Assembly: GCA_029547025.1 (NCBI GenBank)
Contig: JAKPQA010000035.1
Span: forward strand, 1-64,000
DNA from: Armatimonadota bacterium
Lineage (GTDB): Bacteria > Armatimonadota > Zipacnadia > UBA1398 > JAKPQA01
Reading direction: 5' to 3'
DNA length: 64,000 nt
Part shown: positions 2,911 to 62,534 of the stretch, piece after piece
Position numbering within the stretch: the stretch's first letter is position 1
Layout: the number at the start of each line of letters is the position of its first letter
Position numbers and translations under genes: made by a program
The notes under the pieces: generated by a model
The model's database searches: none
The model's input: the letters and a program-made list of their open reading frames with translations, nothing else
Told to the model about the DNA's origin: nothing

Positions 2911-3051
2911 AGGGTCCTCCGTATGGTCTGCGGTTCCGGCATGGGGACAGGCAACGGGCTCACCAAGGTACATCGGTGGGCGCGCTGCCGGGGTTCCCGG
3001 GACCGCGCCCCGGGAACCGATGCGTTCGGTGATCTGTGGAGGTTCGAGCGA

Positions 3052-6000: not shown

Positions 6001-6354
6001 CACTCGGGCGGCCAACCCGCGGGTGGCGTCTCGCTGACCGCGCAACCGGAGGGCCGCTACACCGTCTCGTACAACGCGCTGGCGCCCCGAGTGTCGATCT
6101 CGCAGTGGGGCGTCGGTGACTTCCGCCGGGCCAACAGCGAGCCCCTGGCAACCCCGCTGTTCTTTGGGGCCCACGGGAGCCCGCTGGCCCGCCTGCTGCT
6201 GAGCGGACACCAGGGAGTCAAGCTCGAGGGCGAGGACTGGGACCGGTTGGTGACCTGGATGGATGCCAACGCCCTGTTCTACGGCACCTTCAACTTCGAG
6301 GACCAGGCGCGGCAGCAGCGCGGAGAGCGTATCGAGGGGCCCGAGCTGGAGTAG
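3052..6354 (+). CDS. Secreted F5/8C (discoidin) - propeller - c-type cytochrome protein, hydrazine-synthase-alpha-like
   Basis: A 1100-residue exported protein. The ATG at 3052 has GGAGG nine bases upstream and begins a signal peptide (basic start, then VMVGLGLAALCLWGAALA). Residues about 30-165 form a discoidin/F5/8C carbohydrate-binding fold (LSGVRVSADTEYS to AEVAVRM). Residues about 480-900 have WD40/PD40-like blades (SDLRQLTDGAFDDFAPRY, DGRLVFISTRR) of the kind found in the middle domain of the hydrazine synthase alpha subunit family. The C-terminus has two candidate haem sites: CVGCH (about 929) and CVSCH (about 979). The family is widespread in Planctomycetota-like genomes and is mostly unrelated to anammox. 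Here there are no hydrazine synthase beta or gamma genes, so hydrazine synthesis is not supported. A polysaccharide-linked periplasmic redox role is an inference. Confidence 0.85.
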   Translation: MRFVRMRFERVMVGLGLAALCLWGAALAQPGMDPAGLSGVRVSADTEYSAAHAAARVVDGTIQAPEGSWLSADWTPLPCTLTLELPATEVIRSIVLHQAVWSGNMYHTQDFEIDASEDGRDWRRAGAGRLPDESGASVEVPLDGCRARWLRIRILTSYNPQQTCGLAEVAVRMDGHPSFGPCAVELNGVPAGPSDAVAGLRVAAVPGGPQMALMARPATAVVALARGEEARLRVPVGGLAGPVTVTAEAAGDPGASAAISLADGPVRWQEVKPGATVVRAEAHVTGDVVVSLASKATRDGSTVRWSSIRLIAREREFEIPLVAESPIEDLGPPPELPALRPAIEQSLIEWDWACQDGIGTARCPSTYEEAIRRTIARGDALLADLRSRAAGMGDVARRWEAVRARLSELDGADPMGVKARKLWLEVHAARRQMALSNPLAHVGPLLFVKQVPAAFSHQLTQYYGRYARPGGGVFVLDQPGRSMACRRLAAGALPEGSYQHPELSYDGQRVLFSFCATDRGPGDSFVGNPGRYYHLYEMGIDGSDLRQLTDGAFDDFAPRYLPDGRLVFISTRRLGWHRCGTPGCENYTLAVAEADGSNARPVSYHETQEWDPAVLDDGRIIYTRWDYVDRHAVFYEQLWATLPDGSLPSTFYGNNTFNPVGVWEPRPVPGSPRIMATAAPHHGMTAGSIVLVDVGYGVDGEAPITRLTPDALFPESESTLAASWRADIPGLSVDVPIEEQRWPGHCYRSPYPLSEDYFLAAYSYDRLIGEPSPNPRNMFGLYLVDRWGNKELLYRDPNIASLWPVPIRPRTRPPVVVSGATGNGKGTGTILIQDIYESAPAIPRDVVRKLRVVQLVPKSTPGANNPPVGLANASPGKQVLGTVPVEPDGSAWFEAPAGVPLSFQALDERGMAVQVMRSDTYLQPGQSMSCVGCHEPRTTAPPNRSLRALSRAPSKIAPGPDGSKPLSYPLLVQPVLDKHCVSCHSGGQPAGGVSLTAQPEGRYTVSYNALAPRVSISQWGVGDFRRANSEPLATPLFFGAHGSPLARLLLSGHQGVKLEGEDWDRLVTWMDANALFYGTFNFEDQARQQRGERIEGPELE

Positions 6355-44309: not shown

Positions 44310-45286
44310 TGGCGGCGTCTCGATCCGTGGCGTTCGCGCTGCTGCTGTCGGTCGCACTGCCGGCCGGGGCAGGATCCGCCACAGAGCCCTTTGAGATGTC
44401 ACGCGATGGTTTCACCATCCAGTACCATGCCCGCCGGCGTTCGGCGACCGGCGAGATCTTCCGGGTACTGAGCGAAGCCCGGGCGGCGGTGAGCGCCCGG
44501 CTGGGTACCGAGGCCCCGCCCCCGGTGACGGTTCGCTTCTGCGAGTCCGCGCAGGAGTTCCACGAGTCCATTGGGCTGCGCGTGCCCTGGTACGTGGCCG
44601 CAGTGGCCCTCCCGGAGGAACGGCGGATCGCCGTGGAGTGGGACGTGGCATTCCCGAGTTTGCGCCAGGTTCTTGCCCACGAGCTCTGCCACATCTACCT
44701 CCACGAGTCCCTTGGACCGCACGCGCGAGCTGTGCCGCTGTGGATGGAGGAGGCGATCGCCAAGCACGTGTCCGGCGAATGGACCGAGAGCGACGAGGTA
44801 GTCCTCCAGGAGGCCGTGCTCGGTGGTAAGCTTCTCGGGTTTGGATCGATCGAGCGCGACTTCCCGTCGCAGCACCGGGCCGCGACGGTGGCGTATGCTC
44901 AGAGCGCCACGTTCCTCGCCTTCGCGGAGCAGCGGCACGGGCCTCTGGTGCTCAGAGCCTATCTGGATGGCGTGCGCGGAGGCCTGGGCCATCGCGAAGC
45001 GCTGGAGGCGGCGACGGGTCGGGATCTGGACTCACTGGAAGCTGAGTGGAAGGAGTACCTGCGGCTCCGATTCCGCCGGCGGATGCTGGCGGACCGCGTG
45101 GACGAACTGATCTTCAGCTTCATGGCGGTGCTCCTTCTCGTGTGTGCCGGCGTGGTGTGGGTGCGGCGGCGGCGCTGGCTGGCCGAGCAGGACGCCGAGG
45201 AGTTCCCGGAGGAACTGGGGAACGGCCCAAGCATGACCGGCTATCCACCCAGGCGTCGTGGGCGCTACTTCGGCCCGCGTTTCTGA
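44309..45286 (+). CDS. Exported gluzincin peptidase (peptidase MA-like)
   Basis: About 325 residues from a GTG (44309) overlapping the previous stop codon. Signal peptide (SVAFALLLSVALPAGAGSA), then the zinc-metalloprotease motif HELCHIYLHE (H124, E125, H128) with a downstream Glu in WMEEAIAKHVSGEW, as in gluzincins with an HExxH-(18-64)-E arrangement. A single membrane helix near the C-terminus (ELIFSFMAVLLLVCAGVVWVRRRR) anchors it. Peptidase MA-like proteins are of unknown substrate; envelope protein turnover is plausible. The tricorn-like protease follows 20 bp later, so they may act together. Confidence 0.83.
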   Translation: MAASRSVAFALLLSVALPAGAGSATEPFEMSRDGFTIQYHARRRSATGEIFRVLSEARAAVSARLGTEAPPPVTVRFCESAQEFHESIGLRVPWYVAAVALPEERRIAVEWDVAFPSLRQVLAHELCHIYLHESLGPHARAVPLWMEEAIAKHVSGEWTESDEVVLQEAVLGGKLLGFGSIERDFPSQHRAATVAYAQSATFLAFAEQRHGPLVLRAYLDGVRGGLGHREALEAATGRDLDSLEAEWKEYLRLRFRRRMLADRVDELIFSFMAVLLLVCAGVVWVRRRRWLAEQDAEEFPEELGNGPSMTGYPPRRRGRYFGPRF

Positions 45287-45306
45287 TGATACGAGGAGCG
45301 GTATCC

Positions 45307-48300
45307 ATGCCCGTGTTCCTGATCTTCCTGTTGTCGCAGGTCTCGGCGCCATCGATGTTGGCCGATGCGCAGCGCCTCCCTGTCATCCAAGGCGCTCGTT
45401 TTCCCGCGCTGTCGCCGGACGCCAAGGAGATCGCTTTCAGCTACCGTGGTGACTTGTGGGTTGCGGACATCGCGTCGCGTGTGGCCCGGCGCTTGACGGT
45501 GAGTGAGGGCTACGAGTACCGGGCGGTGTGGTCGCGGGACGGCCGCTACATCGCGTTCGCCTCAGACCGCTACGGCAATAACGATGTCTTCGTCATGCCG
45601 GCCGAGGGCGGGACGATCGCCCGGCTCACGTACCACTCCGCCAACGATCGGCCGGTGGACTGGTCGCCGGATGGCAAGCGCCTTCTGATCTCGTCGGCGC
45701 GAGAGACCCGTTTCCAGTGCCCCTATGAGATCGATGTCGACACGGGTCGTACGACCAAGGTGATGGAGGATGTCACCAACCTGACGCCCGGGATGTACGA
45801 CCCCGATGGCCGGGACTTCCTCTGTGTTCGCGGCGGTAGCTCTTGGTGGCGCATCGGATACCGCGGTGCAACGAACCCGGACATCTACATCTATGACCGT
45901 GAGGCCAAAGAACTGAGGCGCCTGACGGACTTCGACGGGCGCGATGAATGGCCGCTGTTCTCACCTGACGGCCGGCAAGTCTACTTCGTCAGCGAGCGCG
46001 ACGGCGCTCCCAACATCTACCGACTTGACCTCGCGTCCGGAGCCATCGAGGCCATCACCAAGCTGGATGGTGATGGCGCGATGTGGCCCAGCATCTCGGC
46101 CAACGGCAGCACCATCGTGTTCGAGCACGCGAACGGCCTCTGGACGGTACCGACCAAGGGGGGGGACCCCAAGGAGCTGCGGATGCGGGCACCGATTGAC
46201 TATCCGCAGACATTCGAGTCCCGCAAGAGCGTGAGCTCGGGCATTACCGAGCTGGAGGTGGCGCCGGACGGGAAGTTGCTGGCCGTGTGTGTGAACGGCG
46301 ACATCCTGTTGCTCAAACCCGAGTTCGAGAATGACTCGATCCGGCTGACGGACCACCCGGGGAACGACTCGGACTTCATGTGGTCGCCCGACAGCAAGAA
46401 GCTGGTGTTCACCTCAGATCGCACCGGCAACAGCGACCTGTTCATTGCGGATGCCGAGACGCTTCAGGTGCGGCAGCTCACGAACACGCCCGAGTACGAG
46501 CATTCGCCCCGGTTCAACCCGAAGGGCGACCAGGTCTACTTCACGCGTTCGGCGGCCGACGGGCTGTATTCGATCCCGGCCGAGGGGGGCGACATCCGGC
46601 AGGTTCACCCAGGCCCCTTCGTCGAGGAGTACAGCTTCTCGCCCTGCGGGCACTGGCTGGCCCTGGGGCTGCAGGACACTGTCGGCACGCGGGACCTGTG
46701 GATCGTGCCCGCAGAGGGCGGCGAGGCCCACAACATCACGAAGTATCCCGGCGGCAACTACTCACCCGTGTGGGATCCCAACGGCGAGTATCTGTTTTTC
46801 GTCTCAACCCGCACGGGTAATGGGGACATCTACTCCGTGCGCCTGACCAAGGATGCCGAGAAGTTCGACGATTACCAGGCTCAGGAGGAAGAGAAGGCCA
46901 AGCGAGAGGGTAAGAAGCCGGCGCCGCCAGAGAAGCCGGCCGAGGATGGGGAGAAGAAGCCGAACGGTGGGAACGATGGGGAGACGCCGGAGACCCCCAA
47001 GGACGAGGAAGCCAAGCCGGCCGAGGGCGAGGCAAAGCCAGCCGAGGAGGCCCAACCCGAGAAGGAGCCCATCGCCATCGACTTCGATGACATCGAGAAC
47101 CGTGCTCGGCGGCTCACGTCGACCAACGAGGGCGAAGGCAACCTGACCATCGCCCCCAAGGGAGACCGACTGGTCTACACCGTGGCACCCCGCGGCGAAC
47201 CGCAGGTGTGGCAGATGAAGCCCGACGGGAAGGACGCGAAGCCGTTCATCAGCGGAAACGTCGCGGCTGGAGCGCTGCGGTGGACCGCAAGCGGCGATCG
47301 GCTGTACTACTCGGCGAACGGCAAGCCCTACTACGTCGGCGCAGGTGGTGGCGGCGGGTCGGAAGTCAGTTTCCGGTTCGAGTATGTCGACGATGCGCGC
47401 GTCCGCCAAGTGGCGGCCTTCAACCAAGCGTGGATGGCACTGGACGAGCACTTCTATGACGGCAACTTCCACGGTGTGGACTGGAAGGCCATCCGCGAGA
47501 AGTACGCCAAGATGGTGGATGGCACCCTGGTGCCCGGTGACTTCAACATCGTGGTCCAGCGCATGATCGGAGAGCTGAACGCATCGCACCTGGGGTGCTA
47601 CGGGGGCGGCATCAGTGGCCCGGAAACCGGCCTGCTGGGGCTCGACTACGATGAGTCGTACGAGGGTCCAGGCGTGAAGGTGATCGGTCGTCTCTACAAC
47701 GGCCCGTGCACCAAAGCGGGCAGCGAGGTGGCGGCCGGCGAGTACATCCTGCAGATCAACGGGAAGGATGTGCAGTTTGGCGAGAGTCTCTTCGATGCCC
47801 TCAAGGGGATGGTCGGCAAGCGAGTCAAGCTCACCGTGAACTCCAAGCCCGAGGCCGAGGGCGCCCGGACGATCTCCGTGAAGCCCATCGGCGGTGGCGA
47901 GTGGGCGAACCTGCGGTACGAACAGTGGGTCCGGGACAACCGCAACAGGGTGCTCGAGCTTTCGGGTGGAAGGCTGTACTACCTGCACATCCGGAGCATG
48001 GACGGGGCATCGCTGGAGCGCTTCCGCCGCGATCTGTTCGGCGAGGCCCAGCGCTACGAGGGGCTGGTCATCGATGTCCGCTACAACGGCGGGGGCCGCA
48101 TCCACGATGACCTGCTCGAAGAGCTCACCAAGAAGGTCCATGTCTACGAGAACCAGCGGAACGCGCCGGCGGTTACTCAGCCCATCCGCCAGTACGACAA
48201 GCCGAAAGTGCTTATCATCAATGAGCACTGTGCCAGCGACTCGGAGATCTTCCCCAATGGCTTCCGAGAGAAGAAGCTGGGCAAGATCGTCGGGGTCCGA

Positions 48301-48543
48301 ACCTATGGGGGTGTGATTGGCACTTATGATATCACCCTCCTGAATGGCCACGGGTTCCGGATTCCCGTGACGGGCTGGTATACCCTGAACGGCACCAACC
48401 TGGAGAACTACGGTGTGCCGCCCGACATCGAGGTGCCCTACCCGTATGAGGCCTATCGCGATGGCCGCGATCCCCAGATCGAGGCCGCGGTGGCCGAGCT
48501 GCTGAAGACCGTGGGCGCCCCGGAGGAGCCGGCCGCCCCGTAG
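45307..48543 (+). CDS. Tricorn-like protease / S41 family with N-terminal propeller
   Basis: A 1078-residue protein with a signal peptide (MPVFLIFLLSQVSAPSMLA). The ATG at 45307 has GAGGAGC upstream; an ATG at 45286 overlaps the previous stop. Residues about 25-520 are a beta-propeller of PD40 repeats (WSRDGRYIAFASDRYGNNDVFVMPAEGG). An acidic/Lys/Pro-rich linker follows (526-588), then a second propeller part (about 600-680), a PDZ-like domain (GPGVKVIGRLYNGPCTKAGS, about 790) and the S41 catalytic domain with nucleophile S977 in HCASDSEIF and IDVRYNGGG before it. Tricorn proteins degrade peptides from upstream proteolysis. Here export suggests a periplasmic role. Confidence 0.9.
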   Translation: MPVFLIFLLSQVSAPSMLADAQRLPVIQGARFPALSPDAKEIAFSYRGDLWVADIASRVARRLTVSEGYEYRAVWSRDGRYIAFASDRYGNNDVFVMPAEGGTIARLTYHSANDRPVDWSPDGKRLLISSARETRFQCPYEIDVDTGRTTKVMEDVTNLTPGMYDPDGRDFLCVRGGSSWWRIGYRGATNPDIYIYDREAKELRRLTDFDGRDEWPLFSPDGRQVYFVSERDGAPNIYRLDLASGAIEAITKLDGDGAMWPSISANGSTIVFEHANGLWTVPTKGGDPKELRMRAPIDYPQTFESRKSVSSGITELEVAPDGKLLAVCVNGDILLLKPEFENDSIRLTDHPGNDSDFMWSPDSKKLVFTSDRTGNSDLFIADAETLQVRQLTNTPEYEHSPRFNPKGDQVYFTRSAADGLYSIPAEGGDIRQVHPGPFVEEYSFSPCGHWLALGLQDTVGTRDLWIVPAEGGEAHNITKYPGGNYSPVWDPNGEYLFFVSTRTGNGDIYSVRLTKDAEKFDDYQAQEEEKAKREGKKPAPPEKPAEDGEKKPNGGNDGETPETPKDEEAKPAEGEAKPAEEAQPEKEPIAIDFDDIENRARRLTSTNEGEGNLTIAPKGDRLVYTVAPRGEPQVWQMKPDGKDAKPFISGNVAAGALRWTASGDRLYYSANGKPYYVGAGGGGGSEVSFRFEYVDDARVRQVAAFNQAWMALDEHFYDGNFHGVDWKAIREKYAKMVDGTLVPGDFNIVVQRMIGELNASHLGCYGGGISGPETGLLGLDYDESYEGPGVKVIGRLYNGPCTKAGSEVAAGEYILQINGKDVQFGESLFDALKGMVGKRVKLTVNSKPEAEGARTISVKPIGGGEWANLRYEQWVRDNRNRVLELSGGRLYYLHIRSMDGASLERFRRDLFGEAQRYEGLVIDVRYNGGGRIHDDLLEELTKKVHVYENQRNAPAVTQPIRQYDKPKVLIINEHCASDSEIFPNGFREKKLGKIVGVRTYGGVIGTYDITLLNGHGFRIPVTGWYTLNGTNLENYGVPPDIEVPYPYEAYRDGRDPQIEAAVAELLKTVGAPEEPAAP

Positions 48544-51405: not shown

Positions 51406-51714
51406 GCTCGGCGTGTTCGGCGGCCGGGGGCAGGCACCCTTGTGCCCCGGACCAGATGGCAGATGGCAGAGCCTGCCGTCGGCGTGGCGGCCGAACATGG
51501 CCTGCTGGAACTATGCCTTGCCTCCGCCAGGGGCTGCTCGCTAGAATGCGGTCCAGTAGTGGGAATGGTTGTTGCGTAGTGGTCCGAGTCGGTCCCTCGT
51601 GACACATCCCGCCGGTGGCAGGCCTGGACGGCAGCGCGACCGCCGGAGCAGAGTAGCCGCCTGGGGCACGTGCGTCCCGAGGGGTCTTTTGCTTCGAGAG
51701 CTCCGGAGGCCCCC
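51406..51714. other. Intergenic region between GT-C and hydrogenase genes
   Basis: 309 bp with no gene. GGGGCA at 51427-51432 and TGCCCC at 51443-51448 form a 6-bp stem near the GT-C start. CGGAGG at 51704-51709 is the ribosome binding site for the hydrogenase gene. I found no small-subunit gene, promoter consensus or regulator site that I can support. Confidence 0.5.
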
Positions 51715-53049
51715 ATGGCGAGTGTGAGCGTCAACGTCCATAACATCACCCGCGTCGAAGGCCACGGCAACATCGTCCTGAACGTTCGCGACGGCACCAT
51801 CGAAGAGCTGCGGCTTGAGATCACGGAATCCCCGCGCTTCTACGAGGCCATGCTCGTGGGCCGGAACTGGGATGAGGCGCAGGAGATCTCGTGCCGCATC
51901 TGTGGTATCTGCTCCACCGGGCACTCGACGGCGTCGCTGCGGGCCATGGAGGCCGCGCTGGGGGTGACGCCGTCCGAGCAAACGGTCCTCCTGCGGAAAC
52001 TGGCTCTCCACGGTGAGCACAACCAGAGCCATGTGCTCCACGTGCTGTTCCTGGTCGCCCCCGACCTGCTGGGCGCCCCGAGCGTGGTGCCTTTGGCGTC
52101 GACCCACCGCCCGGTGATCGAGATGGCGTTGCGTCTCAAGCGGTTGGCCAACGACCACATTGCGCTCGTGACTGGCCGGCATATCCATGGCGTGAATCTC
52201 AAGGTCAATGGGTTCCACAGTCTGCCGAAGGAGAAGGCGCTTGCGGCCCTGCGTGAGCGCTTGGTGGCGTCGCGAGATGATATCCAGGCCACGATTGAAC
52301 TGGTGGCGTCGCTGAAGCTGCCTGACTTCGAGCGAGCGGGCGAGTACGTGGCCAACAGCCGTGCGGATGAGTATGCCTTCTACGATGGCACCATCACGTC
52401 GTTCCGGCCGCTCCAGTGCGACCACTGCGGGCACACGCTGAAAGAGGGCTACCGGGAGGAGTATCCGATTGAGCGGTATCGCGACATCGCGCGCGAGACG
52501 GTGGTGAAGCACTCGCATGCCAAACACACGGCCTCGGTCCACGGGTCCTATGCTGTGGGCGCACTGGCGCGGGTGAACATCAACTACGATCTGCTACATC
52601 CGGCAGCCAAGCAAGCGGCCGAGGCGCTTGGGTTTCGGGCTCCGTGTATGAACCCGTTCATGAACAACGTGGCGCAACTCATCGAGGTCGTCCACTGCAC
52701 CGAGGACTCCATCGCGATCATCGACAAGCTCCTGGAGCGCGGGATTCAGCAGGAGGACACGAGTGTCGAGGTGCGGGCCGGGCGCGGGGCGGCCGCCGTC
52801 GAGGTACCCCGAGGCATCCTGTTCCACGAGTACGAGGTCGATGACGACGGCAAGATCGTCGCGGCGAACCTCATCATTCCGACGGGCCAGAACCTGAACA
52901 ACATCGAGCACGACATGCGGGCCCTGGTGCCGCAGATCCTGACGCTGAGCCACGACGAGATCCGGCTCATGCTGGAGATGCTGGTCCGTGCTTACGACCC
53001 GTGCATCTCGTGTGCTACCCACCTGCTGGATGTGCGCTTCGTTGGATGA
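51715..53049 (+). CDS. [NiFe]-hydrogenase large subunit, group-3-like, without a small subunit nearby
   Basis: A 444-residue catalytic subunit with CGGAGG six bases upstream. N-terminal ITRVEGHGNI; L1 motif RICGICSTGH (C63, C66, with C60 just before; H70), and L2 motif DPCISCATH (C430, C433, H436), which together ligate the Ni-Fe centre. An 8-residue tail LLDVRFVG follows H436 and is the kind of peptide removed by the maturation protease, whose gene overlaps this one by 20 bp. Sequence and length resemble the alpha subunits of group 3 (cytoplasmic, bidirectional) enzymes. The usual partners (small subunit, NAD/NADP-linked diaphorase, Fe-S subunits) are absent from both sides. Either they are elsewhere, or the protein works as an orphan. 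Confidence 0.88.
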   Translation: MASVSVNVHNITRVEGHGNIVLNVRDGTIEELRLEITESPRFYEAMLVGRNWDEAQEISCRICGICSTGHSTASLRAMEAALGVTPSEQTVLLRKLALHGEHNQSHVLHVLFLVAPDLLGAPSVVPLASTHRPVIEMALRLKRLANDHIALVTGRHIHGVNLKVNGFHSLPKEKALAALRERLVASRDDIQATIELVASLKLPDFERAGEYVANSRADEYAFYDGTITSFRPLQCDHCGHTLKEGYREEYPIERYRDIARETVVKHSHAKHTASVHGSYAVGALARVNINYDLLHPAAKQAAEALGFRAPCMNPFMNNVAQLIEVVHCTEDSIAIIDKLLERGIQQEDTSVEVRAGRGAAAVEVPRGILFHEYEVDDDGKIVAANLIIPTGQNLNNIEHDMRALVPQILTLSHDEIRLMLEMLVRAYDPCISCATHLLDVRFVG

Positions 53050-53563
53050 GGAATGGTCGGCCCGGGCCGGGCGGACGGTGGTCATTGGGGTCGGCAACCG
53101 GTTGATGGGCGATGAGGGGATCGGCGTCCGGGTGGTGGAGGAACTGAAGCGGCGCTCGCTGCCCGACGACGTGGACGTGGTGGACGCGGGTACCATCGGG
53201 CTGGATCTGCTGTTTGTGCTCGAGGGGTATGCGCGGGCCGTGATCGTGGATGCGGCCGAGATGGGTCTGCCGGCGGGAGAAGTGCGCGTGCTGGGTCCGG
53301 CCGATCTGGCAGAAGCCGGTCCCGTGTCCGACGCTCACGGAATGGGTGTTGCCCAGGTGCTCGAGCTCGCGGAGGCCATGGGGCTTTGCCCCGCGAATGT
53401 GGTTCTCGTGGGTGTACAGCCGGACAGGGTTGGTCCCGCATTGGACCTGTCGAAGCCCGTGGAGGCGGCTCTGGCCGGTGCCGTGAGGTGTGTGGAGGCG
53501 CTGGTGCGAACGCCAGGGGACGGGGCAGCCCGTGTGCCCCGCTCGGGGCCATGGCATGAGTAG
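53030..53563 (+). CDS. Hydrogenase maturation protease
   Basis: About 177 residues from the ATG at 53030 (TTG 53042 or GTG 53080 are alternatives without clear ribosome sites). The HyaD/HybD fold is visible: VVIGVGNRLMGDEGIGVRVVEEL, with the metal-binding Glu of DEGIG; VIVDAAEMGLPAGEVRVL, with the metal-binding Asp; and SDAHGMGVAQVLELA, with the metal-binding His. The nickel-sensing endopeptidase trims the large subunit's C-terminal tail. Its gene overlaps the end of the hydrogenase gene, confirming the pair. Confidence 0.88.
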   Translation: MCASLDEEWSARAGRTVVIGVGNRLMGDEGIGVRVVEELKRRSLPDDVDVVDAGTIGLDLLFVLEGYARAVIVDAAEMGLPAGEVRVLGPADLAEAGPVSDAHGMGVAQVLELAEAMGLCPANVVLVGVQPDRVGPALDLSKPVEAALAGAVRCVEALVRTPGDGAARVPRSGPWHE

Positions 53564-53605: not shown

Positions 53606-54025
53606 ATGCCTGACGGCCACAAGATCCTGATCGTGGATGATGACCCGGATCAGGTCGACTCCACCCGGTTGATCCTCGAGAGCAACGGCTATGACGTCGT
53701 CGTGGCCTACGACGCACGTCAGGCCTTCGAGACGGCTCTGGCCGAGAAGCCGGACCTGATTGTGCTCGACATCATGATGCCGGATGGCACGGAAGGGTTC
53801 CAGCTCGTGAGCCGTCTTCGCAACGAGCTGCCCGAGGAGCAGGCGAACGTCCCGATCATCATCGTGTCGGCCATCCACGACTACACGACGCTGCGGCTGT
53901 ACCCCGATCAGTCGGATACGACGTATGCCCCGGGGGAGTATCTCGACGCCCAGGGCTTCATCGACAAGCCGGCCGAGCCCCGGCAACTGCTCGGGAAGGT
54001 CGCCGAGCTTCTGCGGAAGCCGTAA
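53606..54025 (+). CDS. Single-domain response regulator
   Basis: A 139-residue receiver with no output domain. KILIVDDDPDQVDSTRLIL (D11-D13), phospho-acceptor D55 in LIVLDIMMPDG, and K121 in FIDKPAEP. Before that Lys the chain has an insert (YPDQSDTTYAPGEYLD) longer than usual. It lies between the hydrogenase pair and the histidine kinase, 37 bp before the kinase start on the same strand. The kinase is the likely phosphodonor. Output may be by protein contact. Confidence 0.88.
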   Translation: MPDGHKILIVDDDPDQVDSTRLILESNGYDVVVAYDARQAFETALAEKPDLIVLDIMMPDGTEGFQLVSRLRNELPEEQANVPIIIVSAIHDYTTLRLYPDQSDTTYAPGEYLDAQGFIDKPAEPRQLLGKVAELLRKP

Positions 54026-54062
54026 CTGCCGCGCGGCCGGGCCCACCCGGATCGGTGCCCCC

Positions 54063-55445
54063 ATGGCGAGCAGGCCACTGGAGACCGTCGACCCCGAGCT
54101 GCGAGACCGGATGCGGTGGCTTATTGGTCTGCGCTGGGTTGCCGCGTTCGGGCTGGCCGTGGCGTCAATCGTGTCGTCCTTCTGGCCCGCGCTGGGCATC
54201 GCGTGGCATCCCGTGCTGGGCCTGGCTCTGGCTCTGGTCGTGGCCAACGCGCTGATCTCCGCGGCCGTCGCGCGGTTTCCGCCCGTGGGAGAGACGGGCC
54301 TCCGACGGTTCAACAAGGCGCAGATCGGGGTGGATCTGGCGGCCTTGACGGGTCTGTGCCTGTTCTCGGGCGGCGTCCACTCGCCTTTCCTCGCGTTCTT
54401 CGTGTTCCACATGATCCTCACGAGCATCCTGCTCTCGCCGCGTGACAGCTACGAGGGGGCCACCGTGGCGGTGGGGTTCATCGCCGCGATCTATCTGCTC
54501 ACCGATCGTGAGACCCGGCAGGGCCCAAGCGCCGTACTTGTGGTGGCCGTCATGATCACCACCGTCTACACATGTGTCTACCTGACGACATCCATTACCA
54601 CCGCTTTGCGGGCGCGCGAACGCGAGCGGGCCCGGCTCACCGAGGAGCTTGCGGCACGGGCCGAGGCGTTGCGGCGGGCGTATGACGAGATCGAGGAGAC
54701 ACGCAAGCTCGAGCTGCGGTACATGCGCAAGGTGGCTCACGAACTCCGGTCGCCGCTGGCGGCGGCCATCTCCTCGCTGCAGGTCGTCGGGCTGGGTATG
54801 GCGGGTGAGCTCGCGGAGCGCCAGGCGCAGATGGTGGGCCGCGTCGAGACGCGGATGCGCCAGCTCCTGAAGACCGTGGACGACCTGTTGCTGCTGGCGC
54901 GAGAGCGGGCGCGCGCCAACGCCGTGGCCGGGCCCGGCGATCTGGTTAGCCTCGCCGCAGTGATCGGGGCGGTGGTGGAACTCCTGGAGGCGCGAGCCCA
55001 GGCGAGTGGCGTGGCGCTTGCGACGGACCTGCCGCCCGACCTGCCGGCGATCCGGGCCGATCGCGAGGCCCTAACACAGGTGTTCACCAACCTGATTGGC
55101 AACGGCATCAAGTACACGCCCGAGGGGGGAGCGGTGCGCGTGTCGGCTCGTGCGGAGGACGGTGCCGTGGCGGTTTGTGTCGCCGACACGGGGATCGGGA
55201 TCCCGGCCGAGGACGTGCCGCGGGTATTTGAGGAGTTCTTCCGTGCCTCGAATGCCCGAAGCCATGCCGCGGTGGGCACGGGCCTGGGCCTCGCCATCGC
55301 CAGGAGCGCCGTCGAGGCCCTGGGCGGATCGATACGGGTCTCGAGCCAGGAGGGAGTCGGCACCCAGTTTACCGTCACCCTCCCGATCGAGCCCTCGCAG
55401 GGTCCCCTGGCCGTCTCCGGTCTGGCCCCCTCGCCCCCTGAATGA
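54063..55445 (+). CDS. Membrane histidine kinase
   Basis: A 460-residue kinase. The N-terminal half has about five hydrophobic helices (GLRWVAAFGLAVASIVSSFWP, VLGLALALVVANALISAAVA, and others), resembling membrane-integral sensors of the RegB/PrrB type, though no redox-quinone motif is sure. HisKA: YMRKVAHELRSPLAAAISSLQVV (His about 226). HATPase: NLIGNGIKYTPEGG, CVADTGIGIP, GTGLGLAIARS. A signal entering through the membrane, possibly redox or hydrogen-linked given the hydrogenase next door, is a hypothesis only. Confidence 0.88.
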   Translation: MASRPLETVDPELRDRMRWLIGLRWVAAFGLAVASIVSSFWPALGIAWHPVLGLALALVVANALISAAVARFPPVGETGLRRFNKAQIGVDLAALTGLCLFSGGVHSPFLAFFVFHMILTSILLSPRDSYEGATVAVGFIAAIYLLTDRETRQGPSAVLVVAVMITTVYTCVYLTTSITTALRARERERARLTEELAARAEALRRAYDEIEETRKLELRYMRKVAHELRSPLAAAISSLQVVGLGMAGELAERQAQMVGRVETRMRQLLKTVDDLLLLARERARANAVAGPGDLVSLAAVIGAVVELLEARAQASGVALATDLPPDLPAIRADREALTQVFTNLIGNGIKYTPEGGAVRVSARAEDGAVAVCVADTGIGIPAEDVPRVFEEFFRASNARSHAAVGTGLGLAIARSAVEALGGSIRVSSQEGVGTQFTVTLPIEPSQGPLAVSGLAPSPPE

Positions 55446-55704
55446 GGGGTCGGCGGACACCCTTTCGCACTCTCAGGAAGGTATCAGGGCCCGAGGGCTC
55501 GGAAATAGGCGCTAGTTCCCGGCTGTCGGCGGAGCCCCCCTGGGGCGGCCCGCCCCACGTGGGGCCGCCGTTATGGGGGCCCGCGTTGTGTTACCGCCCC
55601 CGCGCCTCCGCGAAACGGTGGGGCGCCTCGCTTGCCGTCAGCCGTGATGCGTGCGGGACGGGCCGTGCCCGGCCCGTGCCTGCATGGAGGGAGTCGCGGC
55701 CATC
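55446..55704. other. Noncoding stretch with a G/C-rich palindrome
   Basis: 259 bp with no gene. CCCCACGTGGGG at 55553-55564 is a perfect 12-bp palindrome; GGCGG at 55544-55548 and CCGCC at 55565-55569 extend it with a four-base bulge. GGGGGCCC and CCCCCGCG runs lie around it. It could end the kinase transcript or bind a regulator of the efflux operon. The efflux adaptor's ribosome site (GGAGGGA at 55686-55692) closes the region. Confidence 0.5.
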
Positions 55705-57729
55705 ATGTCCTGGCTACGACGGCGCGCGCCGACGATCGCTCTGGGGGTCATCCTCATCGCGGTGACGGTCACGGCCGAGATGACTCACCGGCAGCCATCG
55801 AAGCCCCGGGCCAGCAAGTCCGAGGCGGTAACGCCTGTCCCCGTGCAGACCGCCGAGGCGAAGCTCCGCAGATTGCCGCGTACGGTGGAGGTCTCGGGCC
55901 AGGTCGAGCCGTTGGTGCGGGCCGAGGTGGCGCCCGAGATCATGGGCCGGATTCTCGAAATGGGGCCGCGCGAGGGCGACCAGGTGTCGGAGGGGACTGT
56001 GCTGGCGCGCATCGACGACAGTGCGGCCCAGGCCGAGGTCGCCCGGGCCAACGCCATGGTCGCTGCGGCCCGCGCAGCGAAGTCCCAGGCCGAAGCCGCG
56101 TTCAAGATCCAGCAGACCCAGAGCGAGGTGCGGGTCTCGCAGGCCCAGCAGGACCTCGCCATGGCGCAGAGCTCCCGCGAGGAGGAGAAGGCCCAGGCGG
56201 ACGAGGCCGTGCGCCAGGCCGAGTCGGCCGTGGCGGCCGCCCAGGCGCTCGTCGACCTGGTCAAGGAGGGCGCACGGAAGCAGGAGAAGGCTCAGGCCCA
56301 GGAACGGGTGCGGCAGGCTCAGGCCGGGCTGGAGCAGGCCCGTGCTGCCCTGGACAAGGCCAGAAACGGGCCGCGTCCCCAGGAAGTCAAGGAAGCCGAG
56401 CACGCGGTGGCCCAGGCCCAGTCGGCTGTAGACCAGGCCGAAGCCGCGCTCAGCAAGGCGAGGGAGGGCGCACGGAGGCAGGAGCGGGCCGAGGCCGATC
56501 AGTCGGTGATCCTCGCCGAGGCCCAGTACACCACGGCTGAGGCCGCCCACCGGCGCATGAAGGCCCTGATGGACGCCGAGGTGATCTCGAAGCAGGCGTT
56601 CGAGGAATCTGAGCTTAAGCTACAGGCTGCTAAGTCCGCACTGGAAGTCGCCCGCCAGCGGACCAACCTGGTGCATGAGGGTGCCCGCACACAAGACATC
56701 CAATCGGCGGAAGCGGCGGTGTCTCAGGCCAAGGCGGCCCACAGTGCGGCTCTGGAGCGCCTCAAGCTTCTGCAGGAGGGCACGCGACCCGAGGACGTCC
56801 GGATGGCCGAGCAGCAGGTCGCCGCCGCCGAGTCGGCGGTCGAACAGGCCAGACAGCATGCCGAGATGCTGCTCGAAGGCCCCCGCTCGCAGGAGGTCAT
56901 CCAGGCCGAGGAGGCGCTGCGCCAGGCGGAGGCACAGGCCGAGATCGCGCGCAAGGCTCGCGATATGGTGCACGCGGGAGCTCGGCCCGAGAAGGTCAAG
57001 CAGGCGGAGGACGCCGTGCGCATGGCCGAGGCGTCCACTGAGGAGAACACCATTCGTCAGCAGGCGGTCGAGGCAGCCCAAGCGGCCTTGGCGCAAGCCG
57101 AGGCGGCAGCCCAGGCCGCCAACGTTACACTGGCGCACACGCAGGTTCGATGCCCGTATACCGGGATCGTGGTCGAGCGGCTCGCCGACGCCGGGGACAT
57201 GGCGGTGCCCGGTCAGCCGATCGTGGTGATTCAGCCCAACGATCGATTCCAGCTCCGCTGCGACGTCCCCGAGGCCGAGGCGAAGCTCCTCCAGACCAAC
57301 CAGCGCATCGACGTGGTGATCGACGCCATCGGCGCGAAGCCACTGTCGGCCACCGTGGTGACTGTGACCCCGTCGACGGATGCCTCGAGCCGATCCTCGG
57401 TGGTGAAGCTGGCGCTGCCGGCCGATCCGCGCCTGCGCTCGGGGCAGTTCGGCCGTGCCCGCATCCCCATTGGCCAGCGGCCGGGCATCGTGGTGCCCAT
57501 CGCGGCCGTGCGCCGGCATGAGTCGGTCACCAGCGTGTTCGTGGTGGACCGCGGTTTCGCGCGCAGTCGCCTCGTGCGTATCGGCGAGGACCGCGGCAAG
57601 CAGATCGAGATCATTGCCGGCCTCGAGGGCGGCGAGCAGGTCATCGTGTCCGATGTCGAGCGGCTTGTCGACGGCATCCCGGTCAAGACGGGACAGGCCA
57701 GCCCCAGAGCCAAACGGGCGGAGCAGTGA
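55705..57729 (+). CDS. RND efflux periplasmic adaptor with very long repetitive coiled-coil hairpin
   Basis: A 674-residue HlyD/AcrA-family adaptor, about 1.7 times the usual length; the start is the ATG at 55705 (ATG 55684 is possible). Membrane helix [15 protein letters not shown]; first half of the lipoyl/barrel region [22 protein letters not shown], second half [29 protein letters not shown]. Between them is a helical hairpin of about 370 residues. Seven units start with a G(A/P/T)R motif (codons beginning 56266, 56365, 56464, 56677, 56776, 56875, 56974), exactly 33 residues apart, plus a degenerate unit at 56167. A tip segment [21 protein letters not shown] separates four units on each side. 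The ends of the chain form the barrel and membrane-proximal domains. It is the first gene of the pump operon. Confidence 0.9.
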
Positions 57730-57736
57730 TGGCAGC

Positions 57737-60700
57737 GTGAGTGACCAGGAGCGCCCCGCCGGCGAGGGGGGGCACGTGCAGGGCGAGGTGCGGTCCGGGC
57801 CGGGACGGCATCGCTATGGCCTGGCCGGCGCCACGGCCCACATGTTCATCGACTCGAAGCTCACTCCCCTGGTGGTCTTCGCGTCGCTGATGCTTGGCGC
57901 CATGGCCGCGCTTCTCATCCCCCGAGAGGAAGAACCCCAGATCATCGTCCCCATGGTCGACATCTTCGTGCAGATGCCGGGGGCATCGGCCGAGGAGGTC
58001 GAGCAACGGGTTACCAAGCCCATGGAGAAGCTCCTTTGGGAGATCCCGGGGGTCGAGTACATCTACACGACATCGAGCTCTGGCCAGTGCATGGCCATTG
58101 TGCGATTCCGCGTCGGGCAAGACGAGGAGGACAGCCTCGTCCGGCTCTGCAACAAGCTTTACTCCAACTACGACCTCATCCCCCCGGGCTGTTCCGAGCC
58201 TCTGGTGAAGCTCCGTTCCATCGACGATGTGCCCGTGCTGGCTCTGACGCTGTGGACCGATGCTCCGTACTATGAGCGCGGGGGCCAGGTTCTGCGGCGG
58301 GTGGCCGCCCAGCTGGAGGATGACCTGAAGGAAGTCCCGGACGTCTCGTCGACGCGGATCATCGGTGGGGACCGCCGGCAGATCTGCGTCCGCGCGGACC
58401 GCGTGCGGCTCGCCGGACACGGCGTCGATCTGGACCGGCTGATCCAGGCACTCCGCGGCGCCAACCGAGAGCTACCATCGGGTTCCTTCTCGGCCCAGGA
58501 TTACCGCTTCCAGGTCGACACAGGCGAGTTCCTGAAGTCGGCGGCCGATGTGGAGTCGGTTGTGGTCACCGTCGGGCCCGGTGGGCCAGTCTACGTTCGC
58601 GACGTGGCGGACGTCAGTGACACCGGCGAGGAGCCGAGCAGCTATGTCTACTTCGGCCTGGGCCCAAGGAGTGAGGAGAAGGGCGTTCGCCCCATCGGCT
58701 ACGACCGTACCTTCGACGCCGTGACCATATCCGTGGCCAAGCGCAAGGGCACCAATGCGGCTACCGTGGCCCACCAGGTGCTGCGCAAGGTCAAGACCCT
58801 CCGTGGCGCGGCCTATCCCTCGGATGTGCACATCACCGTCACCCGCAACTACGGCGAGACGGCCCTCGAGAAGGCCAATGAGCTGCTGAAGCACCTGCTG
58901 ATCGCCACGCTGTCGGTAGCGGTACTGATCGCCTTCGCGCTGGGGGTCCGTGAGGCGGGAGTGGTGCTGGTCGCGGTCCCCGTAACCCTGGCGCTCACCC
59001 TGATGGTCTTCTTCCTCTACCGCTACACGCTCAACCGGGTAACGCTGTTCGCGCTCATCTTCTCCATCGGCATCCTGGTCGACGATGCCATTGTGGTCGT
59101 CGAGAACATCGTGCGGCACTTCCGTCTGCCCGAGAACCGGGGTCGGGCGGCTTCCCAGATCGCCGTCGATGCGGTGGCCGAGGTGGGGAATCCGACCATC
59201 CTCGCGACCTTCACGGTGATCGCGGCCATTCTGCCTCTGGCCTTCGTTCGGGGACTCATGGGCCCCTACATGCGCCCTATCCCCGTGGGGGCGTCGGCGG
59301 CCATGATCTTTTCCCTGGTGATCGCCTTCGTGATCTCGCCCTGGGCGTCGATCCGGCTGCTCAGACGGCAGGGGCGTGGCGGTCACGAGGGCGAGCGAGA
59401 GGGACGCGCGACCCGGCTCTACCGTCGGGTCATGGGCGCCTTGGTCCATCGCAGGGGCGTGCGATGGGGGTTTCTGATCGGCGTTGTGGTGTTGCTGGGA
59501 CTCGCCGTGTCCATGCTCTTCGTCAAGCTCGTCAAGGTGAAGATGCTGCCCTTTGACAACAAGAGCGAGTTTCAGATCATTGTGGACATGCCCGAAGGCT
59601 CGACCCTGGAACAGACTTCGGCGCTGTGCCGGCAGCTTGGGAACTACGTCAGCGGCGTACCCGAGGTCACCGACTACCAGTGCTACGTCGGTACATCCGG
59701 GCCGTTCAACTTCAATGGTCTCGTCCGGCACTACTTCCTGCGCTCGGCCGCGAACGAGGCGGACATCCAGGTGAACCTGGTTGATCGCCATCACCGGAAG
59801 GCCCAGAGCCACGACATCGCCAAGCGGGTACGGCCCGACTTGGTGAGACTCGCCCAGCCCTATGGGGCGCGGATCAAAGTGGCTGAGGTGCCGCCCGGAC
59901 CTCCAGTCCTGCAGACCATGGTGGCCGAGATCTATGGTCCGGACATGCGACGGCAGCGCGAGATTGCGGCCCAGATCCTCTCGGTCTTCGAGAAGACGCC
60001 CGGGGTTGTCGACGCCGACTGGTATGTCGAGGAGACCATGAGGACCGTTGACGGCAAGGCCAGGTTGGTGCCTGGCCCTCAGACCAAGTATCGCTTCATG
60101 GTCGACAAGGAGAAGGCGGCTTATCACGGCATCACGGGCGAGCAGATCGCGGGCACGCTTAACGCGGCTCTCCATGGCGCCGTCGTGGGCCTGGCGCATA
60201 TTCCCGACGAGAAAGAGGACGTCGACATCTGCGTGCGGCTGCCCGAGTCGCAGCGATCCAGTGTGGACGACCTTCGGCAGATCCAGATCGCCTCGCGATC
60301 CGGCGAGCTCGTTCCGCTCGGCGAACTGGCCCGGGTTCAGGTAACTGAGGGCGATGAGGCCATCTACCACAAGAACTTGCAGCCCGTGGTGTATGTCACC
60401 GCGGACCTGGCGGGTGTCATCGAGAGCCCGGTCTACGCCATTCTGAAGATGAACCGCACCATCGACCGCATGAAGCTCCCCGAGGGGTATCGGCTCAAGC
60501 GGTACACCACGCATCAGCCGTTCTCGACGGCACGGTACTCCATGAAGTGGGACGGCGAGTGGCACATCACCTACGAGGTCTTCCGCGACATGGGACTGGC
60601 CTTCGCGGTGGTCCTCGTGCTGATCTATGTGCTGGTTGTGGGATGGTTCCAGTCGTTCTGGAAGCCCATCGTGATCCTGGCGGCGATTCCCTTCTCACTG

Positions 60701-61222
60701 GTCGGGATCTTGCCGGCACACTGGGCTATGGGCGCGTTCTTCACGGCGACATCGATGATCGGCTTCATCGCGGGAGCCGGTATTGTGGTCCGCAACTCGA
60801 TCATCCTTGTCGATTTCATCGAGCTCCGCCTGCAGCAGGGATCCCACCTCGACCAGGCGGTGATTGATGCCGGTGCGATCCGGTTCCGCCCGATGCTGCT
60901 CACGGCGGCCGCCGTGGTGGTGGGCTCGGCGGTGATCTTGTTCGACCCCATCTTCCAGGGCTTGGCGATTGCACTGATGGCTGGCGAGGTGGCCTCGCTC
61001 CTGCTCTCTCGAATGACCGTGCCGGTGCTCTACTTCATGGCCGAGGCCCGAGCGCTGCGGCGCTCCGGTCAGGCAGACCGCATCACGGCGATCGGCCCGA
61101 GCGCGGTCGAGGGCTCCAGGGATGCCGCGCAACAACCGATTGTCGGCTCAGCCTTCGGCCCCGACGTCTCGGACCCGCTGTCCACTTCCGGGGAGGAGGG
61201 GTCCGATGACACGCCTGTCTAG
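57737..61222 (+). CDS. RND family efflux transporter, inner-membrane pump
   Basis: About 1161 residues from the GTG at 57737; a GTG at 57776 is an alternative. First helix [22 protein letters not shown]; porter region ([31 protein letters not shown]); the helix pair with [18 protein letters not shown]; and a second half with [18 protein letters not shown] and [22 protein letters not shown]. The AcrB-like order of two 6-helix halves with large periplasmic domains is complete, and it is proton-driven. The TolC gene begins inside its last 17 bp. Substrate class (drugs, metals or lipids) is not shown; no metal-binding Met cluster is evident. Confidence 0.92.
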
Positions 61223-62534
61223 GTTCGCATGGCTGGCGGCCCTGATCGTCCAGGCGGCACTGCCGTCGTTCGGCGAGGATGCGCCGCCGGCGCCGCCGGC
61301 CCCGCAGGCGGCCAACCCGGCCGACGAGTACGACCTCCAGCGTTGCGTTGATGTGGCCCTCTCACGGAACCCATCCATCCGGGCGGCTGCCGCGTCGGTG
61401 GCGGTCGCGATGGCCGATCTCAAACAGGCGAAAGGCCTCAATGATCCCAAGCTCACGGCTGCCGGAGGCGTGTCACTGTACCAGAGCGACCCCAGCTTCG
61501 CGGTGCCTGGCCTGGGACGACTCGTATTCGGCCAGCGGCTCAATGTGGATGCCAGCCTGCAGTTTGAGTTCCCGCTCTACACCGGCGGTCAATCCGACGC
61601 CGCCGAGGATCAAGCCCGTGCGGGTGTGCGGGCCGCGGCCTACGCCGAGGTCCGAGCCAATCAGGCCGTGGCCCTGCAGGCGGTCGAGGCCTATTTTGGG
61701 GTGCTCAGGGCTCGGGGAGCCACGCAAGTCGCCGAGAGGCAGCTTGAGGCGCTCCAGGCCCAGAATCGCGCTGTCTCTGAGATGTACAGGGTGGGTCTCG
61801 TCGCGCGGCTGGACGCGTTGAGGGTGGCCGCGGCCTTGGCCGCGGCCGAGGAAGCGGTCGTCGTGTCCCACAACGCTGAGAAGGTGGCAGTGGCCGCCCT
61901 GCGGGCCGTCCTTGGCCTCCCACCGGACACGCCGATCACCGTGGTCGAGCGCTACGATGATGTGGCGCTACCGGCGACCCTGGATGAGGCACTCGCCGAG
62001 GCCCAACAGCAGCGGGCCGACCTCCACGAGATCGAGGCTCACATCGCGGCCGCCGATGCCGCTTACCGTCTGGCCGAGGCCGGGCGTCACTTCACGCTGG
62101 GCCTGTACACTCGCGCGGATTTCCTCCGGACCTCACTCCTGCCTCAGACCGGCATCCTCTCGGGTGGGATCCAGTTCCGGATCCCTCTCTTTGATGGCGA
62201 CCAGTCGGACGCCGGCAAGAATCGGGCCCAGGCTCAGAAGGAGAAGCTTATCGCTTTCCGTGACAGCCTCCGGGACCAGGTCAATCTCCAGGTTACTGAA
62301 GCTTTCCTTGCCCAGGAGTCTGCGACCCGGCGCGTGGCTACGGCCCAGCGAGGTGTCCAGGCGGCCGAAGAAGGCTTCCAGCTCGCCGCAGTGGGCTATG
62401 CCAACCAGGTCGTCCCGCTAACCGACATGCTGGATGCCCAGGCACGCCGGACTCAGTCCCAGAACGACTTGGTGAACGCCACGTACGACCGCCGCATGGC
62501 CATGGCTCGGCTGGTGAACGTGCTCGGGCGCTAG
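61206..62534 (+). CDS. TolC family outer membrane efflux protein
   Basis: A 442-residue TolC-like protein from the ATG at 61206, with GGGGAGGAGGGG upstream. Signal peptide [20 protein letters not shown]. The two structural repeats are seen: helices with [30 protein letters not shown] and [41 protein letters not shown], each with the QVxxAY-like and EexxxLxxxryxxG patterns. It should form the trimeric outer-membrane channel for the pump. The adaptor's longer-than-usual hairpin would need to dock on it. Confidence 0.9.

What the first reader, a model, noticed from the sequence alone, without database searches (positions are those of the whole stretch)
55705..57729. Efflux adaptor with 4+4 symmetric 33-residue repeats in its hairpin
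Codons starting the G(A/P/T)R motif occur at 56266, 56365, 56464, 56677, 56776, 56875 and 56974, with the first three and last four each spaced by exactly 99 bp. A degenerate unit occurs at 56167. The break (213 bp) holds the hairpin tip ([13 protein letters not shown]). This gives four units on each arm. 33 residues is three hendecads, so the repeats would stack in register along an antiparallel coiled coil. Known adaptors have arms several times shorter (established knowledge). A hairpin of this length could span most of the periplasm. Internal tandem duplication that extends both arms together is implied.
Basis: seen in the sequence. Interest (0 to 1): 0.7.

Follow-up and report, generated by a model that had tools for sequence, protein, structure and literature searches.

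The report
Extra-long jointed efflux-pump adaptor hairpin
A drug-pump connector protein in an uncultured Armatimonadota bacterium carries a helical arm about four and a half times as long as the E. coli one, built from matched repeats; in its phylum arm length follows the lineage plus the kind of pump, as if each species measured the gap between its two membranes.

Summary
In detail: 33-residue units at 99-bp spacing, four per arm (one degenerate), around a standard TolC-contact tip. The protein is an RND periplasmic adaptor (TIGR01730, above cut-off) in an adaptor-RND pump-TolC operon of an Armatimonadota genome. Its arms are 190 and 189 residues, against 41/40 in E. coli AcrA. AlphaFold2 predicts helices broken in register at each G-x-R; the pairing of the arms is inferred. 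In 106 adaptors the two arms match within -3 to +7 residues in 105; the exception is a landmark error. Close relatives step 132/130, 165/163, 198/196. So the single hairpin with matched arms is supported. The hendecad reading is not: units are heptads interrupted by a five-residue G-x-R break. New here: across 32 Armatimonadota genomes plus E. coli, hairpin length is additive, lineage baseline plus pump-type offset (R2 0.97); RND and MacB-type adaptors co-vary after phylogenetic correction (r = 0.84). Different pump types in this genome each imply about 18-22 nm more reach than in E. coli if the arms are straight. I infer that hairpin length tracks membrane spacing; no Armatimonadota periplasm width was available to prove it. 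New variant of a known kind.

The parts
55705..57729 (+). RND-type periplasmic adaptor; ATG start at 55705 (the ORF can start at GTG 55651; protein P0001 is numbered from 55651)
   Evidence: ORF; TIGR01730 RND_mfp 185.9 bits against cut-off 94.9; PF13437 and PF16576 above cut-off
55912..56013 (+). first half of the lipoyl domain, aa 88-121
   Evidence: strands in the AF2 model; landmark used for arm lengths
56014..56583 (+). ascending hairpin arm, aa 122-311, 190 residues
   Evidence: AF2 helices 124-206, 210-239, 243-272, 276-308
56167..56265 (+). unit U1 (degenerate, no G-x-R)
   Evidence: 42% aa identity to U2
56266..56364 (+). unit U2 EGARKQEK...
56365..56463 (+). unit U3 NGPRPQEV...
56464..56562 (+). 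unit U4 EGARRQER..., leads into the tip
56575..56616 (+). hairpin tip [14 protein letters not shown], expected TolC contact
   Evidence: non-helical 309-313 in AF2; same motif as AcrA YISKQEYDQA
56587..57153 (+). descending hairpin arm, aa 313-501, 189 residues
   Evidence: AF2 helices 314-343, 347-375, 380-406, 414-441, 446-462, 464-495
56677..56775 (+). unit D1 EGARTQDI...
56776..56874 (+). unit D2 EGTRPEDV...
56875..56973 (+). unit D3 EGPRSQEV...
56974..57072 (+). unit D4 AGARPEKV..., degrades after about 20 residues
57154..57690 (+). second lipoyl half, beta-barrel and membrane-proximal domain, aa 502-680
   Evidence: AF2 strands; structural matches to AcrA, MexA, BesA over 61-683
57827..61222 (+). 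RND pump (AcrB/MdtC class), 1131 aa from the position scanned; exact start not settled
   Evidence: PF00873 E=6.6e-151
61206..62534 (+). TolC-type outer-membrane factor (OEP), ordinary size; start at 61206 inferred from the signal peptide (ORF opens at 61122)
   Evidence: PF02321 E=8.9e-46; TIGR01844 130.7 bits

Best explanation
This is the periplasmic adaptor of a tripartite RND efflux pump. Its alpha-hairpin is one long antiparallel coiled coil made of about four roughly 45-50 A heptad segments per arm, joined at paired G-x-R hinges; both arms are equal, so the tip can reach a normal-sized TolC channel far above a normal-sized pump. Hairpin length in this phylum is set by two additive terms: how far apart the membranes are in that lineage, and how much of the gap the pump's own periplasmic head fills (RND least hairpin, MacB-type more, EmrB and YbhF most). 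Shown: repeats, arm equality, 7n+5 architecture, operon, additive lineage and pump-type pattern. Predicted: helices and in-register breaks. Inferred: the pairing of the arms, a straight hairpin of about 27-29 nm, and a membrane gap wider than in E. coli by about 18-22 nm.
For: Repeats and tip. Arms 190/189. 105 of 106 adaptors with equal arms, r = 0.986, arm 55-227 residues; about 6% would be expected within 7 residues if the tip lay anywhere in the middle 40%. Matched 33/33 steps in relatives. AF2 models of this protein (33-residue units) and of a 26-residue-unit paralogue both put helix breaks at nearly equal distances from the tip on the two arms. Both models align over the whole hairpin, in sequence order, with antiparallel coiled coils of MukB or Rad50, with large rmsd. 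Length = genome + pump type: R2 0.97, genome given type F=41.5 p=2e-23, type given genome F=49 p=2e-15, 33 genomes including E. coli, 80 cells. RND vs MacB-type across 31 genomes r=0.91; independent contrasts on an rpoB tree r=0.84, 0 of 5000 permutations reach it. Hairpin tips of RND and MacB-type adaptors in one genome are no more alike than between genomes (0.284 vs 0.284), so swapping of hairpins between paralogues is not the cause. Pump and TolC here are of ordinary size. The type order matches E. coli (AcrA 82, MacA 96, EmrA 128, YbhG 134 residues in all).
Against: No Armatimonadota periplasm width was found, so the wide gap is not measured. pTM is 0.45 and pLDDT drops to about 60 at the hinges: AF2 gives helices and breaks, not the overall shape, and coordinates or predicted errors could not be inspected. 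Within this genome RND adaptors differ (163, 177, 190 per arm), so a strict single ruler fails unless pump subtype or bending absorbs about 40 A. In some genomes (G051, G065, G081) RND and MacB-type hairpins are about equal. rpoB distances and roughly one genome per family are a coarse phylogenetic control; the additive model uses 37 parameters for 80 cells.
Confidence: 0.62

Rival explanations
1. The hairpin bends or folds back at the G-x-R hinges into a shorter bundle, as the CusB hairpin does, so its contour length overstates its reach and the periplasm is ordinary.
For: Paired helix breaks with low confidence at each G-x-R; CusB is known to fold its hairpin back (PMC4446572); RND adaptors of one genome differ by up to 27 residues per arm, which bending could absorb.
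Against: Folding back would relax the need for lineage-wide coordination, yet length is additive in lineage and pump type and the type order follows how much the pump protrudes. Arms stay equal at every length.
Confidence: 0.2
2. The long hairpin runs alongside or around TolC (deep interpenetration or a sheath) rather than bridging a wider gap.
For: Older deep-interpenetration models exist for AcrA-TolC (PMC4446572).
Against: From general knowledge the TolC alpha-barrel is about 100 A long, much less than 270-290 A; it would not explain why EmrB and YbhF-type adaptors of the same lineages are longer still by a roughly fixed amount.
Confidence: 0.08
3. Neutral tandem expansion: repeats grow and shrink by slippage, with arm equality the only constraint, and lineages differ by inheritance.
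For: A near-identical 99-bp tandem copy in one arm of L020 shows that units do duplicate; closely related genomes share lengths.
Against: RND and MacB-type adaptors, whose hairpins are not more alike within a genome than between genomes, still change together after phylogenetic correction.
Confidence: 0.1

Closest known systems
AcrA/MexA, RND periplasmic adaptors (TIGR01730)
   Same: Domain order, tip motif, operon with RND pump and TolC, structural match over residues 61-683
   Different: Arms 190/189 against 41/40; hairpin segmented by G-x-R breaks
YbhG of E. coli (NF002939), ABC-type adaptor
   Same: Similar G-x-R heptad unit flanking the tip, one per arm, arms 67/66; profile matches in four stretches, E=1.9e-38
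   Different: 132.5 bits against a cut-off of 393; pump here is RND; four units per arm instead of one
EmrA (Aquifex, 4tko), longest hairpin of the solved structures met here
   Same: Very long antiparallel coiled coil with heptad phase shifts (PMC4158417)
   Different: About 80-84 residues per arm (127 A) against about 190; EmrA lacks a membrane-proximal domain and serves an MFS pump
CusB
   Same: RND adaptor whose hairpin departs from a simple two-helix rod
   Different: CusB is short and folded back; no tandem units
SlpA/OmpM outer-membrane tethers of deep-branching diderms including Armatimonadetes (PMC9388160)
   Same: Long periplasmic coiled coils whose length varies between species and matches envelope dimensions (28 nm, wall at 30 nm in D. 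radiodurans)
   Different: Unrelated protein; tethers outer membrane to wall, not pump to channel

Membership tests
RND periplasmic adaptor (TIGR01730 RND_mfp) | Profile score above curated cut-off | tested here: met
   185.9 bits, cut-off 94.9
RND periplasmic adaptor (TIGR01730 RND_mfp) | Encoded with an RND permease and an outer-membrane factor | tested here: met
   PF00873 and PF02321 directly downstream; same order in L131 and L132
RND periplasmic adaptor (TIGR01730 RND_mfp) | Lipoyl, beta-barrel and membrane-proximal domains around an alpha-hairpin | tested here: met
   AF2 model and structural matches to AcrA, MexA, BesA, Z 14-16; predicted, not solved
RND periplasmic adaptor (TIGR01730 RND_mfp) | Hairpin is one antiparallel pair | tested here: inconclusive
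   Equal arms in homologues and in-register breaks support it; global fold confidence low (pTM 0.45)
RND periplasmic adaptor (TIGR01730 RND_mfp) | Binds TolC by its tip | not testable with these tools
   Only the tip motif is seen to be conserved
YbhG (NF002939) | Score above equivalog cut-off | tested here: not met
   132.5 against 393
EmrA/EmrK (TIGR00998) | Score above cut-off; MFS partner | tested here: not met
   63.8 against 390.8; partner is RND
HlyD type I secretion adaptor (TIGR01843) | Score above cut-off | tested here: not met
   21.0 against 208.65
Hendecad coiled coil | Core spacing 3-4-4, period 11 | tested here: not met
   Core at 8, 11, 15, 18, 22, 25, 29, 32 of 32 units; 26-residue units exist

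The most novel reading that the evidence does not exclude
Adaptor hairpins act as a species-wide molecular ruler: unrelated efflux adaptors of one cell are lengthened together, in units of about 26-33 residues on both arms, so that each spans the same membrane gap minus the height of its own pump. In this Armatimonadota cell the gap at pumps would be about 40-45 nm, roughly twice that of E. coli, and genome sequence alone would predict periplasm width.
Probability: 0.5. Interest if true: 0.78.

Novelty: new variant of a known kind. Interest (0 to 1): 0.62.

Why it matters
How envelope-spanning pumps match the distance between two membranes is an open question; a review notes that some transporters seem too short for the visible gap (PMC5771553), and lengthening the E. 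coli tether Lpp makes AcrB and TolC conditionally essential (PMC8824477). A pattern in which adaptor length equals lineage plus pump type would turn genome sequence into a prediction of membrane spacing that tomography can test. The jointed 7n+5 unit also shows a modular way to lengthen a hairpin while keeping both arms matched. I found no description of either in the open-access papers searched.

Tried and rejected
Hendecad reading: rejected on the core profile and the 26-residue units. Exchange of hairpins between paralogues as the cause of within-genome similarity: rejected on tip-centred identity. OmpM/SlpA stalk length as an independent ruler: SLH proteins exist in all seven genomes tried, but those read carry collagen-like and short coiled stretches and would only measure membrane to wall; not pursued. 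Two scans of named genome contigs gave only two close relatives plus three remote ones. Genomes of other phyla could not be used as search centres. The first arm-length regex mis-set landmarks in some loci (L017, L042, L046, L047, L051; later L055, L068, L085, L092, L113); corrected by stricter landmarks or by hand. L068 is the one remaining outlier. Literature searches for species-dependent hairpin length or Armatimonadota envelope width gave nothing direct; the main 2021 review is held only in part (300,000 of 747,799 characters).

Full report
WHAT IS THERE. The ORF 55651-57729 (ATG at 55705) encodes an RND periplasmic adaptor: TIGR01730 185.9 bits against a cut-off of 94.9, PF13437 and PF16576 above cut-off. 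It is followed by an RND pump (57827-61222) and a TolC-family protein (about 61206-62534), and preceded by a response regulator and a histidine kinase (53606-55445). The only two close named relatives found are Armatimonadota MAGs, WJIW01000517 and UBA1398, with the same adaptor-pump-TolC order.

THE OBSERVATION. The repeats are exactly as described: 33-residue units starting at 56167 (degenerate), 56266, 56365, 56464 and 56677, 56776, 56875, 56974, with the tip [14 protein letters not shown] between. Self-similarity at lag 33 is 1.02 against a shuffle maximum of 0.30. Unit identity is 24-52%, against 12.5% expected from composition. At DNA level the copies are about 42-61% alike, so the array is old.

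ARCHITECTURE. Measured from the end of the first lipoyl half to the tip and from the tip to the second lipoyl half, the arms are 190 and 189 residues. E. coli AcrA gives 41/40, YbhG 67/66, EmrA 62/65. Aquifex EmrA, called exceptionally long, has a 168-residue, 127 A coiled coil (PMC4158417). At 1.41-1.55 A per residue (from the AcrA and EmrA figures in that paper) a straight hairpin here would be about 27-29 nm. AlphaFold2 (pLDDT 84, pTM 0.45) predicts helices 124-206, 210-239, 243-272, 276-308 and 314-343, 347-375, 380-406, 414-441, 446-462, 464-495. The breaks lie 38, 71 and 104 residues before the tip residue 312 and 33, 66, 98 and 132 after it, i.e. nearly in register; the fourth descending break faces the degenerate unit U1. 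A paralogue with 26-residue units (L003, 4+4) also has breaks that face each other, one of them missing on the descending arm. Structure alignment matches the ordinary domains to AcrA, MexA and BesA (Z 14-16) and lays both arms in order along antiparallel coiled coils of MukB or, for L003, Rad50, with large rmsd. Overall straightness is not established, and pairing of the arms is inferred from equal arms and facing breaks.

HEPTADS, NOT HENDECADS. Across 32 aligned 33-residue units the hydrophobic positions are 8, 11, 15, 18, 22, 25, 29, 32, with I/V/L alternating with Ala; Gly2 and Arg4 are fixed by the search motif itself. That is a heptad pattern with a five-residue break. Spacings between motifs on one arm are 5 modulo 7 in 44 of 61 cases, including 26, 33 and 61. 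33 is also three times 11, but 26 is not a multiple of 11. The G-x-R pair flanking the tip is 71 residues apart in 56 hairpins, as it is here.

MATCHED ARMS. In 106 distinct adaptors with a clear tip, ascending and descending arms correlate at r = 0.986 over 55-227 residues, and 105 differ by -3 to +7 residues; the exception, L068, is a wrong landmark. A second series runs 131/128, 163/159, 195/190. One relative, L020 in G068 (196/190), carries a 33-residue tandem copy in its ascending arm whose DNA is 97-100% identical over the central 66 bases, while the descending arm holds only older copies. Units can therefore be duplicated on one arm at a time.

GENOME-WIDE PATTERN. The adaptor is not alone. 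In its own genome the other hairpin adaptors have arms of 163/159 (RND), 177/175 (RND, 26-residue units), 209/209 (next to a YbhF-type ABC exporter and a TolC) and 198/192 (contig end); a sixth adaptor, next to a MacB-like ABC transporter, has no hairpin. I collected RND-, MacB-, EmrB- and YbhF-associated adaptors, typed by their neighbouring pump gene where it could be seen, from Armatimonadota genomes chosen mostly one per family. In 33 genomes including E. coli, genome alone explains 83.5% of the variance in hairpin length, pump type alone 5.6%, both together 97.0% (residual 17 residues over two arms); without E. coli the joint figure is 96.1%. Type offsets relative to EmrB are YbhF -9, MacB -27, RND -65 (window-like pumps) and -78 (MdtB-like pumps), broadly the order seen in E. 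coli (AcrA 82, MacA 96, EmrA 128, YbhG 134). RND and MacB-type lengths correlate across 31 genomes (r = 0.91) and as independent contrasts on an rpoB tree (r = 0.84, 25 contrasts; 0 of 5000 permutations). RND and MacB-type hairpins of one genome are no more alike around the tip than those of different genomes (0.284 in both), so copying of hairpins between paralogues does not explain it. A small set from other phyla, RND-type: 68 residues in Gemmatimonadota, Bacteroidota, Ignavibacteria and Rhodocyclaceae, 82 in E. coli and Janthinobacterium, 124 in four cyanobacteria.

MECHANISM. A hairpin must carry its tip from the top of the pump to the bottom of TolC. Pump and TolC here are of ordinary size, so the extra length sits in the adaptor. 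RND pumps protrude furthest and have the shortest hairpins; EmrB barely protrudes and has among the longest. Compared with the E. coli counterpart of each type, this genome's adaptors are longer per arm by about 149 residues (window adaptor), 120-136 (other RND) and 142 (YbhF type), i.e. about 18-22 nm at 1.5 A per residue. That different pump types give similar figures is what a wider membrane gap predicts. Wide gaps exist in another deep-branching diderm: D. radiodurans has a periplasm of 121 nm (PMC9388160). No Armatimonadota measurement was found, so this last step is inference. Against a strict ruler: RND adaptors within this genome differ by up to 27 residues per arm, and a few genomes show no RND-MacB difference. 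Pump subtype, bending at the hinges, or local variation in spacing could account for this.

COMPARISON AND VERDICT. It is a member of the RND adaptor family and carries a unit like the one seen once per arm in YbhG, repeated about four times. Reviews state that adaptor hairpins vary by heptads (PMC4446572) and that EmrA is long because EmrB lacks much of a periplasmic domain (PMC13328181). I found no description of multi-unit hairpins of this length or of lineage-wide coordination, within the open-access library searched. New variant of a known kind; the coordination is the more interesting part.

Noticed in passing
L020:1390-3483 (aa 205 and 238): A 33-residue unit is duplicated in tandem with 97-100% DNA identity over the central 66 bases in the ascending arm only, a snapshot of unit gain.
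   Followed up: partly
L281-L285, L287, L133-L135, L077: RND adaptor hairpin totals take few values by lineage: 68 (Gemmatimonadota, Bacteroidota, Ignavibacteria, Rhodocyclaceae), 82 (E. coli, Janthinobacterium), 124 (four different cyanobacteria).
   Followed up: partly
L114, L121, L127: EmrA-like MFS adaptors in Armatimonadota are also greatly lengthened (299, 299 and 425 residues against 128 in E. coli EmrA).
   Followed up: yes
L176 (G059): Longest hairpin seen: MacB-type adaptor with arms 227/220.
   Followed up: no
L005: Paralogue whose ascending arm has 33-residue units with a THPKGR-type break instead of G-x-R, while the descending arm repeats differ; yet arms are 198/192.
   Followed up: no
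L006 (G000:C91, about 10.5 kb): Adaptor with no hairpin beside a MacB-like ABC transporter, in the genome with very long hairpins elsewhere.
   Followed up: no
window 53606-55445: Response regulator and histidine kinase with a PilS-like membrane region (below Pfam cut-off) directly upstream of the efflux operon; possible regulator.
   Followed up: no
window 51670-53563: NiFe hydrogenase large subunit and its maturation protease next to the efflux operon.
   Followed up: no
window 2923-6354: Large protein with an F5/8 type C domain and the Pfam domain called hydrazine synthase alpha middle domain.
   Followed up: no
window 45046-48543: Tricorn-like protease: PD40 propeller repeats, tricorn C1 and PDZ domains, S41 peptidase.
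   Followed up: no
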